Origin: a bacterium
Lineage (GTDB): Bacteria > CAIWAD01
NCBI GenBank assembly: GCA_030429345.1
Contig: JAUIFJ010000005.1
Span: 62,001 to 126,000 of the forward strand
Direction: 5' to 3'
Length of the DNA stretch: 64,000 nucleotides
Part shown: in pieces, positions 35,862 through 63,572 of the stretch
Layout: every line of letters starts with the position of its first letter
Position numbering within the stretch: position 1 is the first letter of the stretch
The notes under the pieces: generated by a model
Databases searched by the model: none
Seen by the model: only the letters and a program-made list of their open reading frames with translations
Told to the model about the DNA's origin: nothing
Position numbers and translations under genes: made by a program

Positions 35862-35889
35862 ATCTCCTCCACCATCAATGCATCGTTCC

Positions 35890-35922
35890 GGCGATCCTTC
35901 CGAATAGGGGGATCGCCTTTTT
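35890..35922 (+). terminator. Terminator of the citryl-CoA lyase gene
   Basis: GGCGATCC / GGATCGCC, perfect 8-bp stem with a 12-base loop, followed by TTTTT, 28 bases after the stop. Confidence 0.88.
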
Positions 35923-35964
35923 CGTTCCCACCACTCCTTTCGATCTCACTGGGCATGACCGGCT

Positions 35965-36033
35965 CTGACAGCCCAATGACAGCCTGACCGGTGGCCCGGT
36001 CGCCATGTCAGGTTTTGTCAGCTCACCTGTCAG
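35965..36033. promoter_or_regulatory. Symmetric array of TGACA half-sites upstream of hsp20
   Basis: Three TGAC(A/C) half-sites in forward sense (35966, 35977, 35985) are mirrored by three TGTCA in reverse sense (36006, 36016, 36028), with 8-12-base spacings, so that the 69-bp stretch is roughly palindromic about a GGTGGCCCGG centre. It is 75-145 bases upstream of the sigma54 promoter, the usual distance of an activator (enhancer) site. Confidence 0.55.
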
Positions 36034-36108
36034 TACGCTCGTCGTGCAAGATGGGCGAGGAAGCCTCATCCAACCCCATCTACTTGATTTTTATGCTCTT
36101 TCAAAAAT

Positions 36109-36123
36109 TGGCACTGCACTTGC
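36109..36123 (+). promoter_or_regulatory. Sigma54 (-24/-12) promoter of hsp20
   Basis: TGGCAC-TGCAC-TTGC: the GG at 36110-36111 and GC at 36122-36123 are exactly 10 bases apart, matching TGGCAC-N5-TTGC at every defined base. It is preceded by AT-rich DNA (TTTTTATGCTCTTTCAAAAA) and gives a leader of about 65 bases. Confidence 0.72.
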
Positions 36124-36200
36124 CAAGGAAGGAGCCAGAAGCCGACAGCAGATCGCTGTCAGGAAAGACCAACAAACAGACAGATAAAAGGAGACACATC

Positions 36201-36617
36201 ATGTATTACCGCAGCTACCTGCCGACCCTTGCCATCGACCGCGCCCTGCGCAATGACTGCAGCGACAAGACCTGCCACCCGGCCGCCTTCGGTCACCGGC
36301 TGCGCGCCGAACTGCGCGAACTCGGCGAAGGCTGGGAGATCCAGCTGGAGCTGCCCGGCCTGGGCAAGGAGGACCTGGAAATCAGCCTGGACAAGGACGA
36401 GCTGGTGATCGGCGGAACCTTTGTCCGCAAGGACCTGGGCGAACAGGACAAGGTGCTGCACAGCACCCGCTTCCAGGGCAAGTTCGAGCGCCGCTTCCGC
36501 CTGTCGGAGGAAGTGAGCCGCGAAGGCATCCAGGCCAGCATGCAGCACGGTGTCCTGACCGTAAGGCTGCAGAAGGTCGAAAAGGCCCTGCCGACCCGGA
36601 TCGAGATCCAGGGTTAG
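36201..36617 (+). CDS. Small heat-shock protein Hsp20
   Basis: Hsp20/alpha-crystallin chaperone, 138 residues, cytoplasmic holdase. After a short N-terminal arm, the alpha-crystallin domain runs from about residue 38 (WEIQLELPGLGKEDLEISLDKDELVIGG) to HGVLTVRLQKVE, with the conserved A/G-x-L-x-V type motif as HGVLTV. The usual C-terminal I-x-I/V motif is present as RIEIQG at the very end. The N-terminal arm has two Cys (CSDKTCHP). The ATG follows AAAGGAG. No CIRCE element was seen; instead a sigma54-like promoter lies upstream. Confidence 0.95.
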   Translation: MYYRSYLPTLAIDRALRNDCSDKTCHPAAFGHRLRAELRELGEGWEIQLELPGLGKEDLEISLDKDELVIGGTFVRKDLGEQDKVLHSTRFQGKFERRFRLSEEVSREGIQASMQHGVLTVRLQKVEKALPTRIEIQG

Positions 36618-36853: not shown

Positions 36854-37786
36854 CTAGCTCAAAACAAGTTTGAGTCCCGGATCAGTTTCTACACTATCGA
36901 TAATTTGGTTATAGGTATCAAGTAAACGGCGAATTTCAACACTCCGCTTGTCTGACTTGAAGGACATCCACTCATATATATTTGTGGCTATGAACTGACC
37001 GATTTCAACTACATCTACCCTATTGGCTAAGCCTTTCGCCTCTGCATGAACTCGAGCGGCCTCCATGCCTTTTGATCTTGTGATAATAATCGGTTGAAAC
37101 CCCTGATTCAAGTTTGTAAGACATCTATCCATCAATGCCTCTCCAGGTGTTGTTGTAACGTGGATTGCAGAGTCACGCACCAAGAAATCCCCCTTTCTGT
37201 CGGTCTGCTCATCAGAAACGGAGTAGCCATGGTGTTTGATGTTATAATCAGGAAGCGCTAGCACGAGTTTTGCCCCAACAAGATGCTGCAGTACAGCTCC
37301 AGCAACAGTTGAGCCAAGTTGTGTACTTTGCCGCTGATAGGCTGCCGTAAGAATATCATCCACAATGCATCGAAGAGACTTCGAGGAATCCGCGCTCACC
37401 TTCATAGGCTTAGCTAGCAGGAAAACTTTTACCCTTTCCACCCACCACTTTTCAACAAAGTTGCAATCAAGTAACCCATCCTTATCGAGCCCATTTACAA
37501 AGTCCACGTAACTTGTCATGCGTTCCATATTGCCGCGACTTGTTCTACCACCTTCTTGTGCCAACACTTTCTCAATACCATAGTCACTAAGAACTTTTTG
37601 AACTGCCGACTTTCCAAGGCCGCGAACCTGCCCTTGCTTTTGTGTCTGAAACTCTTCGTATGTAAATGGTGGCGTGCCTTCCTTCATTAGCCTGGTCAAA
37701 ACGATCATCAATGAAAGAGACCCTTTACTCTCTATCTTGTGCAGGTCTCGAAAAGACGCTAATCGCAGTTCTAGTTCGTCACTCAT
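36854..37786 (-). CDS. DUF4928-like protein, probable type II restriction endonuclease
   Basis: Protein of 310 residues encoded 8 bases after the cytosine methyltransferase. It resembles the DUF4928 group that accompanies C5 methyltransferases and is taken as the restriction partner. Segments: YVDFVNGLDKDGLLDCNFVEKWWVERVKVFL, then LQHLVGAKLVLALPDYNIKHHGYSV, DRKGDFLVRDSAIHVTTTPGEALMDRC (an acidic D...x-I-H-V pattern resembling a nuclease core), and QPIIITRSKGMEAARVHAEAKG. Target sequence unknown. GC is far lower than in the flanking genes, with many A/T-ending codons, showing recent acquisition. Confidence 0.75.
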   Translation of the reverse strand: MSDELELRLASFRDLHKIESKGSLSLMIVLTRLMKEGTPPFTYEEFQTQKQGQVRGLGKSAVQKVLSDYGIEKVLAQEGGRTSRGNMERMTSYVDFVNGLDKDGLLDCNFVEKWWVERVKVFLLAKPMKVSADSSKSLRCIVDDILTAAYQRQSTQLGSTVAGAVLQHLVGAKLVLALPDYNIKHHGYSVSDEQTDRKGDFLVRDSAIHVTTTPGEALMDRCLTNLNQGFQPIIITRSKGMEAARVHAEAKGLANRVDVVEIGQFIATNIYEWMSFKSDKRSVEIRRLLDTYNQIIDSVETDPGLKLVLS

Positions 37787-37794
37787 TTAGATCC

Positions 37795-38961
37795 TCAGGC
37801 AATGTTCTTGAATTTTGATGGAGCATTGCAAATGCCAACCAGCGGGTTCAGGTAGTTCGATGCGATCCAAGAAATGACAGGAACACAAACTGCGTCCCCA
37901 AATCCAAACAGAGCTTGATTAATGGGAACATCAATCTTGAAACCGGGGGCCCCCATGAGTGATGCACATTCTCTTGGTGTCATATGGCGAACAAATACTT
38001 TATCATATCCAACTTTTATCAGGATCTGCTTAGCGCTCCCGCCTTTAGATGTTCGAAGACAGCCAGCGATTCCATCCGTACGAATCTCTGCCATTGTCTT
38101 ACCGCCTCGAACTCTTCTAAACGCTGTGCAATATGACCATTTTCTTTTCTTCTTTTGCGCCTCAAGAGTTGAATAATGTTTGTCACTCATCTGAGATACA
38201 AAGTATTCTACACGGTCTCTAGACCACCACAGATCCGACTTGTGATCAATTTTCTCAATAAGATTACTCAACTTTTCCTTCAGAACTGGTAGCGCTGGCA
38301 GTGTTCGAATGCTCCAGTTAATATCTGGATGATCGAGGATGAAATTCGCCAAGGCTCTTGGCCTATGCTGAGATTCAAAGAACTGGCGCCCTGCAGAAAC
38401 CACCTTAGACCTATCCAAACTAGGTTTTGAACCAACTACAAAAAGCCGTCTTCGACTCTGAGGAACGAAATGTGCCGCGTCTATAATAAAAGCGTCAACT
38501 TCATACCCAAGCTTGTTCATGGCAGATAGAGCACTATAAAAATCAGTGCCAGAATTGGAAGAAATGAATCCAACTACATTCTCCAAGAGAATCACTTGTG
38601 GGCGACGAGCACCCATCTCTTCAACTACACGCATGAATCCCCAAAATGCCGAGGACTCTTTTCCGGAAAGGCCAGATCTTCCGCCAGCAAGCGAAAGATC
38701 TGTACAAGGAAACGATGCTGTTGCAAGAAGGGTAGACGGTACGGACATGCCCTTCACCACATGTACGTCAGTGGCATCAAAATGACTAGATTTGATTCCA
38801 AAGTGCCCTTCATACATGTCCTTTTTCTTTGTACTGATATCATTTGCATAGAGAATTCTCCACCCAGCTTGCTCCAGTCCTAGCCGCATAAGGCCAATTC
38901 CGGCAAAGAACTCTGCAACAGTCAAGTCATCTTGTGTCTGTTCACGCTTGTAGAGCATCAT
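37795..38961 (-). CDS. DNA (cytosine-5-)-methyltransferase
   Basis: C5 cytosine methyltransferase of 388 residues, the modification half of a type II system. The motifs are in canonical order: SAM-binding VAEFFAGIGLMRLGLEQAG (I), TASFPCTDLSLAG with the catalytic Cys (IV), VILLENVVGF (VI), VPQSRRRLFVVG (VIII), target-recognition region with WSYCTAFRRVRGG, and the late TPRECASLMG and GFGDAVCVPVISWIA (IX, X). The ATG at 38961 (MMLYKREQ) is chosen; upstream extension to 39039 reads as non-coding. AT-rich like its partner. A type II pair of this kind acts as a selfish addiction module and phage defence. Confidence 0.93.
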   Translation of the reverse strand: MMLYKREQTQDDLTVAEFFAGIGLMRLGLEQAGWRILYANDISTKKKDMYEGHFGIKSSHFDATDVHVVKGMSVPSTLLATASFPCTDLSLAGGRSGLSGKESSAFWGFMRVVEEMGARRPQVILLENVVGFISSNSGTDFYSALSAMNKLGYEVDAFIIDAAHFVPQSRRRLFVVGSKPSLDRSKVVSAGRQFFESQHRPRALANFILDHPDINWSIRTLPALPVLKEKLSNLIEKIDHKSDLWWSRDRVEYFVSQMSDKHYSTLEAQKKKRKWSYCTAFRRVRGGKTMAEIRTDGIAGCLRTSKGGSAKQILIKVGYDKVFVRHMTPRECASLMGAPGFKIDVPINQALFGFGDAVCVPVISWIASNYLNPLVGICNAPSKFKNIA

Positions 38962-39054
38962 CGTTCCAGTTCGGTTTGTTCTTAATGAATCTAGTTGTGG
39001 GCTGGGACATCTCGCAGTCTGAATATTGAAGCCGGCCAAACACTGAATGAAAAA

Positions 39055-45283: not shown

Positions 45284-45299
45284 GGCAAAGGTTGTGCCA
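45284..45299 (-). promoter_or_regulatory. Sigma54 (-24/-12) promoter of the subtilase gene
   Basis: On the minus strand TGGCAC-AACCT-TTGC: GG (45298-45297) and GC (45286-45285) are 10 bases apart and all defined bases of TGGCAC-N5-TTGC match. It lies about 12 bases after the stop of the upstream glycosyltransferase gene, and would give a leader of about 180 bases before the subtilase ATG. Confidence 0.65.
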
Positions 45300-59737: not shown

Positions 59738-61165
59738 CTACGAGTGAGGGGAGGACTGCCGTCTGTTTCGGAGTTCTGGCAGAACATCATAGAATTTCTT
59801 CCGGTGTACACCGGCGAGTTCTGCTGCTGTGGCAATGATTCCATTTGCCTCTTCCAGCTTGGCTCGGAAGTAGCGCAACTCGATTTCGGCCTTGACTTCC
59901 TTCCAGGTCTTGTCCAGCGCAAAACCACTTTCGTCGGCGATGTCCGTTTCTTGACCCAGAAGACGCAGGTCCCAGTGCACCCGCTCTCTTTCGACCAGCC
60001 AGGACTGGATCTGTGACTGCTCCGCGTGAACACACAACGCCTGAACGAACTGCATCAATTGGCGCACATTGCCTTCCCAATCGATCCTCGCGAGGGCCTC
60101 AAGGGCATCAGGCTGGATCATGACTGGTTGAGTATGCCTGGCTCGATTTCGAGCTTCCAGAACATGCCCGACAAGCAAAGGAATGTCCTCCAGCCTTTCC
60201 TGCAAAGGCGGTATACGGATGCGCAGCCCGCTAAGCCTGTGAAGCAGATCATCGCGAAAGGCACCCATTCGCACTTGCTGGAGCAGGTTTCGGTTGGATG
60301 CAGCTACCAACTGAACATCTGTGCGACGGATTTTCCCTTCTCCCAGCCGGGAGAAGGTTCCCGTTTCGAGAACCCTCAGGAACTTGCCTTGCACCTCCAG
60401 AGGCAGTTCGGAGATCTCGTCGACGAACAGAACACCATTATTGGCATTTTCGAAAGCACCTGGCCTAGCCTTCCCGGCACCGGTGTATGCGCCGTCTACA
60501 TGCCCAAAAAGTTTGGTTTCCGCCAAGGACACCTGGATGTTGGTGCAATCCAAGACGGTCAATTCTTTGTGTGCTCGTGGACTCTGCCGGTGGATCGCTT
60601 CTGCGACGAGCTCCTTGCCAGTTCCCGTTTCTCCCTCGACTAGAATCGACAAGTCTTCCTCGCTTGCGTAGGTGCGGATCCGGGCACGCAACTCTTGCAT
60701 GACCTGGCTTTGACCTAGTAATGGATCTTCCGCAGGTTCTTCTTCCCGGCGCCATGCGCACAGACTTTCCGCTTCCTTCAGGGCGGGTCGAAGATCGGCA
60801 GCTGCGGACTCCTTAACCACGTATTGAACCATGCCCAGGTTCGCAAAGCGATGGACCAGGCTCGTATTGCCACTCATGGTAATCACGATTACGGGAATCG
60901 CATGCCGATTCTGCCGCAGGTCCTGCAGTAAATGCAGCCCGCCGTTGACATCTCCGGGAAACTCATTATCCAGAAGCAGGACATCCGGCTTCCAGGAGTG
61001 GATCAACTCCTCGACAGATTCCAGATCCGGCGTCCACTCCGCTTCGTATCCCCAGCGCTGCAGGTTCTTTCGGTAGAGCACTCCATACTCCTGCTGATCC
61101 TCTACAATCAGGACACGGTATTTCCGGTTGCCGGCTTGGCGTTCAGGCATGTGACACTCCATCAA
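59738..61165 (-). CDS. Sigma54-dependent response regulator (NtrC/AtoC type)
   Basis: Protein of 475 residues. Receiver domain with phospho-acceptor Asp66 (VLLLDNEFPGD) and Lys118; AAA+ domain with Walker A GETGTGKE (178-185), the sigma54-contact loop GAYTGA (225-230, Tyr in place of the usual Phe), Walker B GVLFVDEI (244-251), sensor/arginine-finger FRDDLLHRL; C-terminal Fis-like helix-turn-helix (AAELAGVHRKKFYDVLPELR). Everything needed to activate sigma54 RNA polymerase is present. It overlaps the histidine kinase stop by 23 bases and is followed by a sigma54 promoter for the LamG gene, its probable target. Confidence 0.95.
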   Translation of the reverse strand: MMECHMPERQAGNRKYRVLIVEDQQEYGVLYRKNLQRWGYEAEWTPDLESVEELIHSWKPDVLLLDNEFPGDVNGGLHLLQDLRQNRHAIPVIVITMSGNTSLVHRFANLGMVQYVVKESAAADLRPALKEAESLCAWRREEEPAEDPLLGQSQVMQELRARIRTYASEEDLSILVEGETGTGKELVAEAIHRQSPRAHKELTVLDCTNIQVSLAETKLFGHVDGAYTGAGKARPGAFENANNGVLFVDEISELPLEVQGKFLRVLETGTFSRLGEGKIRRTDVQLVAASNRNLLQQVRMGAFRDDLLHRLSGLRIRIPPLQERLEDIPLLVGHVLEARNRARHTQPVMIQPDALEALARIDWEGNVRQLMQFVQALCVHAEQSQIQSWLVERERVHWDLRLLGQETDIADESGFALDKTWKEVKAEIELRYFRAKLEEANGIIATAAELAGVHRKKFYDVLPELRNRRQSSPHS

Positions 61166-63572
61166 GTAACTGTTCCTGCCGTACTAGCGGGAGCCGCAAG
61201 TAGACAGCTGCTCCACCGATCTCCTTGTTCCTGACAGTCAATTCCCCCCCGTGCTCATGGGCAATATGCCGCGAAAGAAACAGGCCGAATCCGGAACCTT
61301 CGTCCTTTGTCGTGAATCCCGGTTCCCAGATCCTGTCCAGGACATCCGGCGGAATGCCGGGACCATTGTCCTCGATGCGCAGAACAGCCATTTCTTCCTC
61401 CTGCTGCAACAGAAAGTGGAGCGTCCCTTTCCGGCGCATCGCTTCCACGGCATTCCTCAGCATGCTCTCGATCATCGCCTGGACTGAAGCTGTGGCTACG
61501 TATACGGGAAGCAACTCCGCCTGACGGGAAGAGGTGACATCGATTGTCGACATGGCATCCAATCCCAGATCCGTGCAGGCATTCTCGAGCAGCGTGCCCA
61601 GATCTACCGATTCCCGCTCCTCCCCTACTTTGATGAGGGCCAGAAAACGCTTGATCCGTTCCCGGCAGAACCGGTGGGCCACTTGCATTTCTTCAACTGC
61701 CTCACGGAAGCCAGAATCCTTCTCAAGGCCTGCCTCTTGGATCGACTCCTGCAGATTCACGACCGCGAATTCGGCAGGCAGCAGGGCCTTGCCCAGATTG
61801 TGGGTCAAGATCCCTGCAAAGCTTTCTAGCCTCCCCAAATGTTCCCTTGTCATTCGGTTCGTGTCATCAATTCCCTGAATGTACCACCCTATCCTGGAGG
61901 CTTGAATGTGTGTTTCCCGGGCAATCCAGCGAAACAGCCGTCCGTCCTGCCAGCTATCGATGAATCCCGATTCCCTGGCTCGGGCATGCCCGATCACGCG
62001 ATCCAGCAGATCCCCTGGGACCAGTTCGCGAAATCGCGTATTTGCATAGAGCAACTCTCCCTGGTCATCTGTGAGTGCTGCTGCTGTCACTCCGTCAGAC
62101 AGCATTCCGCTCAACACCCGCTCCTGGCGGCGTACTCTGTAGGACAGATACACCAGCAAGAGGACAAAGGACACAGCGAATGCTGGGGGGATCGCGGGAT
62201 TCGCCATCAAGCGTGATACGAATGGAACATGACTGATCGTGAAGGACTGCAACAACTGACCATCCGAAACATGAATGCGGCTGTTCTCAAGCGTACCGTC
62301 TACGGATTCCAGCAGGATCCGATTCTTATTCCCTGCAGTACTGATCTCGACCAGTGGTTGCCCCTCCGGGGAATAGAGCCTGTATCCGGTCGCGGGGCGG
62401 AATGCGAGCCAGTACGCCTCTTGGACAAGCCCGATCAGGATGCTGTCACGGAATCCACGCAGGTGCCCCGCCGGCACAAGTCTTCCTGAATCGAAAAAAA
62501 ACTTGAATAATCGTCCGTCCTGGTTGACAAGGAGTGCGTGGTTCTGGCGGATCAGACAGAAGTTCTCCAGACCAGCCAAACGAGCCGAAGTAAGCACGCT
62601 GTCCTTCCAAGCATCCAGGACGACCAGGTTATGCGTCTCGGGAACGTCAACCCTGTCAAAGACCTGCTTGGTCTGCAGGTAGATCCGACGGCGGTCCTGC
62701 AGAACGTGGGCATTCAATGCCGTGTGCGCCATCCCCATGCGAATCTGCTCGACAAAACCGGAATCGGGATCCATCAGAAACAAAGGTGCTTCCCCGTCGT
62801 TGACACCACCCAGTTCCCTGCCGTTGCGGGTGGCATGCCCACCCATTGCGTACAAGGAATGGCCATCGGGGGTCAGCAGCGTCTGATTTGAGTAGGGGGC
62901 TGGCGCAATGGCATTGGGAAACAAGTCAACGATCTGCAGCGATAGGGGATCGATGAGAACACCACCACGCCAGCCTTCAAAATGGCCGAACAGGGACAGG
63001 TAAAGCAACTCTCGCCCCTTGTGCTCCAGGCGATTCGCCTCAATGACCCATGGCGCTTCCCTTATTGAAACAGGCACCTGATCCGAGTGAAACAGCGGCA
63101 GGTCCGCTTCCTCAATCCCGCTGCCGAAGGGCCAGCGTCGAAGACACAAGTATACGGCGCTGGAGTCGCGTGTTAGCAGACACAGTGTCGGGGCCCCTGC
63201 AAGCGTATCGAAGAAATGGGGACGAAGAACAATCTCATCCCCTGGAAAGTAGAGCTGCTTGGCCGGACGTCGCTGGAGCGGAGTATTGTACTCGATCGTC
63301 ATCGAAGCGCCATGGAGCTTCGAGCGGGATTCGCGCATTCGCTCGGCGAAACCATCTTGATCGATATCCCCGACCGCAACAAACCCCGCCGTCATGCTGG
63401 AGTCGAACCGTTGGATTCGGTGTGATACACCAGGTTGAAACCAGAATTCCATCGCGCACCCGATGAGCAAGGACAGGAGCACACAAAATGCGACACCGAT
63501 CAATAGAGTCTTCTTGTAATGAACAAGGAAGCTGCGACGATAGGGTAGACCCTTGTTGGCGACACCGAACAT
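61143..63572 (-). CDS. Sensor histidine kinase with large periplasmic propeller-like domain
   Basis: Protein of 809 residues. First membrane helix at about 22-44; periplasmic part 45-460 with an FG-GAP-like GDIDQDGFAE motif (68-77) and repeated strands (LLTPDGHSLYAMGG, FLMDPDSGFVEQI, NLVVLDAWKDSVL, ALLVNQDGRLFKF) suggesting a beta propeller; second helix at about 461-479; a PAS-like segment (AALTDDQGELLYANTRFRELV); a dimerisation helix with the phospho-acceptor His591 in an unusual box (GILTHNLGKALLPAEF); HATPase with N box RNAVEAM, DNGPGIP and GSGFGLFLS. It probably senses an extracytoplasmic ligand, perhaps the product or glycan bound by the LamG protein, and phosphorylates the activator next to it. 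Confidence 0.93.
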   Translation of the reverse strand: MFGVANKGLPYRRSFLVHYKKTLLIGVAFCVLLSLLIGCAMEFWFQPGVSHRIQRFDSSMTAGFVAVGDIDQDGFAERMRESRSKLHGASMTIEYNTPLQRRPAKQLYFPGDEIVLRPHFFDTLAGAPTLCLLTRDSSAVYLCLRRWPFGSGIEEADLPLFHSDQVPVSIREAPWVIEANRLEHKGRELLYLSLFGHFEGWRGGVLIDPLSLQIVDLFPNAIAPAPYSNQTLLTPDGHSLYAMGGHATRNGRELGGVNDGEAPLFLMDPDSGFVEQIRMGMAHTALNAHVLQDRRRIYLQTKQVFDRVDVPETHNLVVLDAWKDSVLTSARLAGLENFCLIRQNHALLVNQDGRLFKFFFDSGRLVPAGHLRGFRDSILIGLVQEAYWLAFRPATGYRLYSPEGQPLVEISTAGNKNRILLESVDGTLENSRIHVSDGQLLQSFTISHVPFVSRLMANPAIPPAFAVSFVLLLVYLSYRVRRQERVLSGMLSDGVTAAALTDDQGELLYANTRFRELVPGDLLDRVIGHARARESGFIDSWQDGRLFRWIARETHIQASRIGWYIQGIDDTNRMTREHLGRLESFAGILTHNLGKALLPAEFAVVNLQESIQEAGLEKDSGFREAVEEMQVAHRFCRERIKRFLALIKVGEERESVDLGTLLENACTDLGLDAMSTIDVTSSRQAELLPVYVATASVQAMIESMLRNAVEAMRRKGTLHFLLQQEEEMAVLRIEDNGPGIPPDVLDRIWEPGFTTKDEGSGFGLFLSRHIAHEHGGELTVRNKEIGGAAVYLRLPLVRQEQLLDGVSHA

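What the first reader, a model, noticed from the sequence alone, without database searches (positions are those of the whole stretch)
35965..36201. hsp20 driven by sigma54 with a symmetric TGACA enhancer array
TGGCAC-N5-TTGC at 36109-36123 matches sigma54 consensus fully. Starting 75 bases upstream are three TGAC(A/C) half-sites and three TGTCA half-sites arranged as a 69-bp near-palindrome, at the right distance for an activator hexamer. A sigma54 promoter is reported for E. coli ibpB, but sigma54 control of small heat-shock genes with such an array is unusual.
Basis: partly seen in the sequence, partly recalled or inferred. Interest (0 to 1): 0.65.

Follow-up and report, generated by a model that had tools for sequence, protein, structure and literature searches.

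The report
Sigma54 heat-shock promoter with enhancer array
In a little-studied group of uncultured bacteria, the genes for two protein-rescuing chaperones (Hsp20 and DnaK) seem to be switched on by an activator-dependent start signal preceded by a row of short DNA docking sites, which suggests heat-stress control without the usual heat-shock sigma factor.

Summary
The core observation holds. An exact sigma54 box (TGGCAC-N5-TTGC, 36109-36123) lies 77 bp before the hsp20 start codon. Five TGACA/TGTCA sites (35966-36032) lie 76-143 bp upstream of it, denser than in any simulated window. The 'symmetric palindrome' is the weak part: the unit is the palindromic pentamer TGNCA, ungapped symmetry is near chance, and relatives arrange the array differently. 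Box plus array precede hsp20 in 5 of 5 genomes of the class (probably Candidatus Delongbacteria). They also precede dnaK in 4 of 4 genomes where its start was found, though one dnaK has only two sites. All five genomes have RpoN and none has a protein above the RpoH cut-off; groES carries HrcA/CIRCE instead. I read this as a sigma54-dependent heat-shock arm for hsp20 and dnaK, with the array as the activator's enhancer. The best activator candidate is a response-regulator-type sigma54 activator (EBP) encoded beside a DnaJ-like gene, clustered with a second hsp20 and lon; that link rests on gene neighbourhood only. Sigma54 at chaperone genes is already reported (E. coli ibpB, Chlamydia hrcA-grpE-dnaK, predictions elsewhere), so this is a new variant of a known kind. 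No expression data were available.

The parts
36109..36123 (+). sigma54 -24/-12 box TGGCAC-N5-TTGC of hsp20
   Evidence: exact match; conserved at hsp20 in 5 of 5 class genomes; 49 boxes in genome against 6 for the control
35956..36032 (.). TGNCA array: TGACC 35956, TGACA 35966, TGACA 35977, TGACC 35985, TGTCA 36006, TGTCA 36016, TGTCA 36028; presumed activator binding sites
   Evidence: cluster beyond 60 Markov simulations; arrays upstream of hsp20 and dnaK boxes in relatives
36124..36200 (+). predicted start of transcription (about 36134) and 5' leader with AAAGGAG ribosome site
   Evidence: read from sequence; leader fold ordinary, z -0.8; start site inferred, not mapped
36201..36617 (+). 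hsp20 (small heat-shock protein, 138 aa)
   Evidence: PF00011 E 2.2e-18
35890..35917 (+). terminator-like hairpin plus T run after the upstream citrate synthase-family gene, separating it from hsp20

Best explanation
This is the control region of a sigma54-dependent heat-shock (protein-damage) arm. RNA polymerase with RpoN sits closed on the 36109-36123 box. A sigma54 activator (EBP) binds the row of TGNCA sites 76-143 bp upstream as an oligomer, reaches the polymerase by DNA looping and opens the promoter with ATP, so hsp20 is transcribed only when the activator is switched on. dnaK uses the same kind of box and array, so the two genes would be induced together, while groES is handled separately through HrcA/CIRCE. 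Shown: box, array, conservation, RpoN present, no RpoH above cut-off, CIRCE at groES. Inferred: that the array binds an EBP, that the signal is heat or protein damage, and that the activator is the REC-AAA+-HTH protein of the dnaJ-EBP-RR-HDOD-hsp20b-lon cluster (about 50% likely).
For: Exact box and dense array. Box plus 5, 7, 6, 5, 6 TGNCA at hsp20 of G000-G004, and 3, 4, 2, 4 at dnaK of G000-G003. Nine hsp20/dnaK boxes average 4.7 TGNCA against 0.62 in 138 other boxes, nominal p 4e-8. RpoN in 5 of 5. RpoH above cut-off in 0 of 5. CIRCE at groES in 4 of 4 and at none of the nine hsp20/dnaK promoters. Candidate EBP with GAFTGA, REC, AAA+ and Fis-type HTH; dnaJ-EBP adjacent in 5 of 5, with hsp20b following in 4 of 5 and lon seen in 3 of 5.
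Against: No transcript or binding data. The candidate EBP's own operon and lon lack box plus array. Four genomes of other lineages with a similar HTH have no sigma54 hsp20. G002 dnaK has only 2 TGNCA. The genomes are related, so the statistics overstate independence. A weak sigma32-like string lies at 36056-36081 (3 of 14 mismatches).
Confidence: 0.72

Rival explanations
1. The promoter and array are real, but the activator is one of the other 16 EBPs and the signal is not protein damage (for example envelope, redox or nutrient stress).
For: 17 EBPs in the genome; the dnaJ-linked EBP is tied to the array only by neighbourhood; 21 of 49 sigma54 boxes precede a signal-peptide-like ORF by a crude test, so sigma54 here also serves exported proteins.
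Against: Both conserved targets with the array are cytoplasmic chaperones (hsp20, dnaK), and the only EBP seen beside chaperone and protease genes is this one (the neighbourhoods of the other EBPs were not surveyed).
Confidence: 0.35
2. The array is a repressor or transcript-hairpin element, or serves another promoter, and does not activate the sigma54 box.
For: The strand can fold (z -3.1); arrays of palindromic sites can also bind repressors (general knowledge).
Against: It lies upstream of the predicted start, so it is not transcribed from this promoter. In nine promoters the sites lie 55-162 bp before the box, typical of sigma54 enhancers. The hairpin geometry is not conserved.
Confidence: 0.12
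3. hsp20 is mainly driven by a sigma32- or sigma70-type promoter and the sigma54 box is minor or chance.
For: A sigma32-like string with 3 of 14 mismatches at 36056-36081 (consensus recalled). In E. coli, sigma54 at ibpB is secondary to sigma32 (PMC4316790, passage read).
Against: No protein above the RpoH cut-off in 5 of 5 genomes; no sigma70-like site in 35862-36300; the sigma54 box is conserved in 5 of 5, whereas the best sigma32-like strings in the other four hsp20 promoters have 4-5 mismatches.
Confidence: 0.1

Closest known systems
E. coli ibpB sigma54 promoter (PMC4316790, one passage read; original work not held)
   Same: A small heat-shock gene with a sigma54-dependent promoter.
   Different: There sigma54 lies inside a sigma32-controlled ibpAB operon; here no RpoH was found, hsp20 has its own promoter with a TGNCA array, and dnaK shares it.
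Chlamydia trachomatis hrcA-grpE-dnaK tandem sigma66/sigma54 promoters (PMC8762339, passages read)
   Same: Sigma54 at a dnaK operon in a bacterium without a typical heat-shock sigma factor; HrcA present.
   Different: There the operon also has sigma66 and HrcA control and the activator is AtoC; here the dnaK promoters lack CIRCE and hsp20 is included.
Myxococcus xanthus HsfA / lonD (PMC9109919, passages read; original paper not held)
   Same: An NtrC-like response regulator controls a heat-shock protease gene; here a REC-AAA+-HTH EBP lies near lon.
   Different: The EBP here is next to dnaJ; no hybrid kinase partner was seen; lon here has no box plus array; HsfA sequence was not compared.
PSSM-predicted sigma54 control of chaperone COGs in Planctomycetota and Bacteroidota (PMC12316311, passages read)
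   Same: Predicts sigma54 promoters at IbpA and DnaK family genes.
   Different: Other phyla; GroEL/GroES are included there but are of CIRCE type here; no enhancer array or activator is named in the passages read.
TGTC-type enhancer sites of GlrR and PilR (recalled, no call)
   Same: EBPs known to bind TGTC/GACA repeats upstream of sigma54 boxes.
   Different: Different target genes and HTH sequences; here the element is TGNCA with a free middle base.

Membership tests
Sigma54-dependent, EBP-activated promoter | GG and GC dinucleotides at -24/-12 with fixed spacing | tested here: met
   TGGCAC-N5-TTGC exact, conserved in 5 of 5 genomes
Sigma54-dependent, EBP-activated promoter | rpoN and EBPs in the genome | tested here: met
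   RpoN 5 of 5; 17 EBPs in G000
Sigma54-dependent, EBP-activated promoter | conserved activator sites upstream of the box | tested here: met
   TGNCA arrays 55-162 bp upstream in nine promoters
Sigma54-dependent, EBP-activated promoter | transcription starts at the box and needs RpoN, an EBP and ATP | not testable with these tools
   needs expression experiments
RpoH (sigma32) heat-shock promoter | an RpoH sigma factor in the genome | tested here: not met
   TIGR02392: 0 of 5 genomes over the cut-off (best about 170 against 323 bits)
HrcA/CIRCE regulon | CIRCE element at the promoter | tested here: not met
   hsp20 and dnaK promoters 8-9 mismatches of 18 (9 of 9), groES 1-3 mismatches (4 of 4)
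HsfA-type heat-shock activator system (M. xanthus) | NtrC-like REC-AAA+-HTH regulator acting on a Lon gene | tested here: inconclusive
   architecture met and lon in the same cluster in 3 genomes, but no box plus array at lon in G000; HsfA sequence and binding site not compared
Symmetric (palindromic) enhancer | inverted arrangement of half-sites kept in relatives | tested here: not met
   ungapped symmetry near chance; G001 array has five TGACA in one orientation

The most novel reading that the evidence does not exclude
A bacterial lineage without RpoH has handed its DnaK/Hsp20 heat-shock arm to sigma54. An EBP encoded with DnaJ, a second Hsp20 and Lon would read protein damage, perhaps by being held inactive by its neighbouring DnaJ, as DnaK/DnaJ restrain sigma32 in E. 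coli (recalled). TGNCA arrays with sigma54 boxes at hsp20 in other lineages (G011, G049, G010) would mark the same solution elsewhere.
Probability: 0.25. Interest if true: 0.8.

Novelty: new variant of a known kind. Interest (0 to 1): 0.52.

Why it matters
Bacterial heat-shock control is mostly described as RpoH-type sigma factors or repressors such as HrcA (general knowledge). A conserved sigma54 switch for dnaK and hsp20, in a lineage where no RpoH was found, would be a third design that stays off until an activator fires. It comes with a testable candidate sensor (an activator encoded next to DnaJ) and with a sequence signature (TGNCA array plus -24/-12 box before chaperone genes) that can be searched in other uncultured phyla.

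Tried and rejected
Symmetric palindrome: tested and rejected as a conserved feature. RNA thermometer in the leader: the 36134-36220 fold is ordinary (z -0.8). IHF site between array and box: an exact consensus was found in 1 of 13 regions (consensus recalled), so not claimed. Wider regulon: of 118 boxes that are not hsp20 or dnaK in G000, G001 and G003, six have 3 or more TGNCA; one is a simple tandem repeat (L295), one is a promoter divergent from groES in G001 (L170), and four were not pursued. In G000, clpB, clpC, hrcA-grpE, hsp20b, lon and dnaJ-EBP show no box with an array. The activator HTH as a marker in other lineages failed: no sigma54 box was found at hsp20 in G066, G207, G225 or G035 (two of the three G035 loci were short and only roughly placed). 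The named-genome scan with hsp20 found nothing.

Rows dropped or partial: sigma54-box loci were read for G000 49 of 49, G001 38 of 38, G003 37 of 37, G004 13 of 33 and G002 10 of 44; the G002 and G004 sets include their hsp20 (and G002 dnaK) by choice. Of 60 genomes searched for hsp20, 54 matched, and the 30 loci of the best matches were read. A full dnaK was not found in G004, only a distant match (genome 67% complete). The TGNCA element was defined after seeing the hsp20 promoters of relatives; the G001-G003 dnaK promoters were looked at afterwards.

Full report
Where it is. The window is G000:C13:62001-126000 of a 4.24 Mb genome. Its held relatives are three genomes of the same family (G001-G003) and one of the same class (G004); all others returned were related only at the level of domain. 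A named record whose contig length equals that of the G004 activator contig (22,192 bases) is titled Candidatus Delongbacteria bacterium, so the lineage is probably Delongbacteria-like (inference).

The observation. The sigma54 box TGGCAC-N5-TTGC is exact at 36109-36123. The genome holds 49 TGGCAYN5TTGC against 6 matches for the reversed-pattern control. Upstream lie TGACA at 35966 and 35977, TGACC at 35956 and 35985, and TGTCA at 36006, 36016 and 36028. Five TGWCA within 70 bp is the densest cluster in the window; 60 Markov simulations of 64 kb peaked at 2 (44 runs), 3 (14) or 4 (2). The palindrome claim is weaker. Without gaps, the symmetry is matched or exceeded at 9-11% of all positions. 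With gaps it folds (z -3.1), but TGACA and TGTCA are each other's complement, so a mixture of both will pair. In G001 all five TGACA have one orientation.

Conservation. From box start to the hsp20 ATG is 92 bp here and 94, 114, 97 and 100 bp in G001, G002, G003 and G004. With the element widened to TGNCA, counts in the interval -170 to -20 are 5, 7, 6, 5 and 6 for G000-G004. Over 54 sites in 13 promoters the middle base is free and the flanks lean to A/C before and G/T after, as expected of a palindromic site; 19 of 39 gaps under 40 bp are 8-12 bp. The gene upstream is of the citrate synthase family here and of a different family in G001-G003, so the control region is kept where synteny is not.

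A second gene: dnaK. Among the 49 boxes in G000, one lies 69 bp (from box start) before dnaK. All four family genomes have the box at dnaK, with 3, 4, 2 and 4 TGNCA. A full dnaK was not found in the 67%-complete G004. The nine hsp20/dnaK promoters average 4.7 TGNCA against 0.62 in 138 other boxes (Mann-Whitney p 4e-8, nominal because the genomes are related). In the fully covered genomes G000, G001 and G003, 6 of 6 hsp20/dnaK boxes and 6 of 118 others have 3 or more; one of those six is a tandem repeat. Of the 147 boxes, 9 have four or more TGNCA; for seven other palindromic pentamers the number was 0 in five cases, 1 in one and 3 in one.

Other heat-shock control. None of the five genomes has a protein above the RpoH cut-off; the best matches (about 164-170 bits against 323) are presumably the primary sigma factor. 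RpoN is present in 5 of 5. HrcA is present in 5 of 5. groES in 4 of 4 genomes has a CIRCE element with 1-3 mismatches of 18, while the nine hsp20/dnaK promoters have none better than 8 mismatches. The picture is two arms: HrcA/CIRCE for groES, sigma54 plus TGNCA for hsp20 and dnaK.

The activator. G000 has 19 PF00158 matches; two of them (L048, L049) are ClpC- and ClpB-like by their sequence (names recalled), leaving 17 EBPs. One, with receiver, AAA+ and Fis-type HTH domains, lies downstream of a DnaJ/DnaJ_C gene and upstream of a response regulator, an HDOD protein, a second hsp20 and lon. The same order is seen in G001, G002 and G003 (the G003 contig ends inside hsp20b), and dnaJ-EBP adjacency in G004. 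Full-length identity to the G000 protein is 46-53%. This is neighbourhood evidence. Against it: the dnaJ-EBP and hsp20b-lon units show no box plus array, and four genomes of other lineages with similar HTHs have no sigma54 hsp20.

Beyond the class. Among 25 hsp20 loci from other lineages (from the best matches), 2 have the exact box (G005, G011) and 2 a near box (G049, G010); their TGNCA counts are 1, 4, 4 and 3. This suggests, but does not show, that the pairing is wider. No activator orthologous to the dnaJ-linked EBP was established in those genomes.

Comparison with the literature (passages read, not whole papers). E. coli ibpB has a sigma54 promoter beside sigma32 control (PMC4316790). 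Chlamydia hrcA-grpE-dnaK has tandem sigma66/sigma54 promoters (PMC8762339). M. xanthus HsfA, an NtrC-like regulator, drives lonD (PMC9109919). A 2025 PSSM study predicts sigma54 control of IbpA, DnaK and GroEL COGs in Planctomycetota and Bacteroidota (PMC12316311). A Geobacter Hsp20 gene, GSU2408, is listed with a changed level in an IHF study, with no promoter statement seen (PMC7962754). In the D. vulgaris sigma54 regulome paper 'heat shock' occurs only in the reference list (PMC4641369). The searches listed no paper that by title or abstract start describes a sigma54 hsp20/dnaK arm in Delongbacteria or a TGNCA array; most subscription journals are not held. The kind is known; the paired targets, the array and the candidate activator make it a new variant.

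What remains open. No transcript start, binding or induction data exist here. The signal, the activator and even the direction of control are inferred.

Noticed in passing
window 36854-39039 (-): A C-5 cytosine methyltransferase (PF00145) and a DUF4928 protein sit next to hsp20 in a stretch of 44-47% G+C, against about 64-67% around it: probably a horizontally acquired restriction-modification pair.
   Followed up: partly
window 59738-63572 (-): Another EBP with receiver and AAA+ domains (59738-61165) lies next to a histidine kinase (61143-63572); its C-terminus gave no Pfam HTH match.
   Followed up: no
window 45285-45299 (-): A second exact sigma54 box in the window (TGGCACAACCTTTGC) lies before an ORF with a signal-peptide-like start.
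   Followed up: no
G000, 49 sigma54 boxes (L050-L098): By a crude test 21 of 49 boxes precede a signal-peptide-like ORF; sigma54 in this genome may mainly serve exported proteins, with the chaperones as an exception.
   Followed up: partly
L170 (G001:C5, between groES and a divergent gene): In G001 the groES upstream region also holds a divergent sigma54 box with four TGNCA, driving a lipoprotein-like gene.
   Followed up: no
L204 (G035:C168), 1027-1671 +: A receiver-HTH protein without the AAA+ domain has nearly the same HTH as the candidate activator.
   Followed up: no
L295 (G003:C226): An about 11-bp tandem repeat (TGGCACCGCTC-like) runs into a sigma54-like box and mimics a TGNCA array; probably simple repeat DNA.
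   Followed up: no
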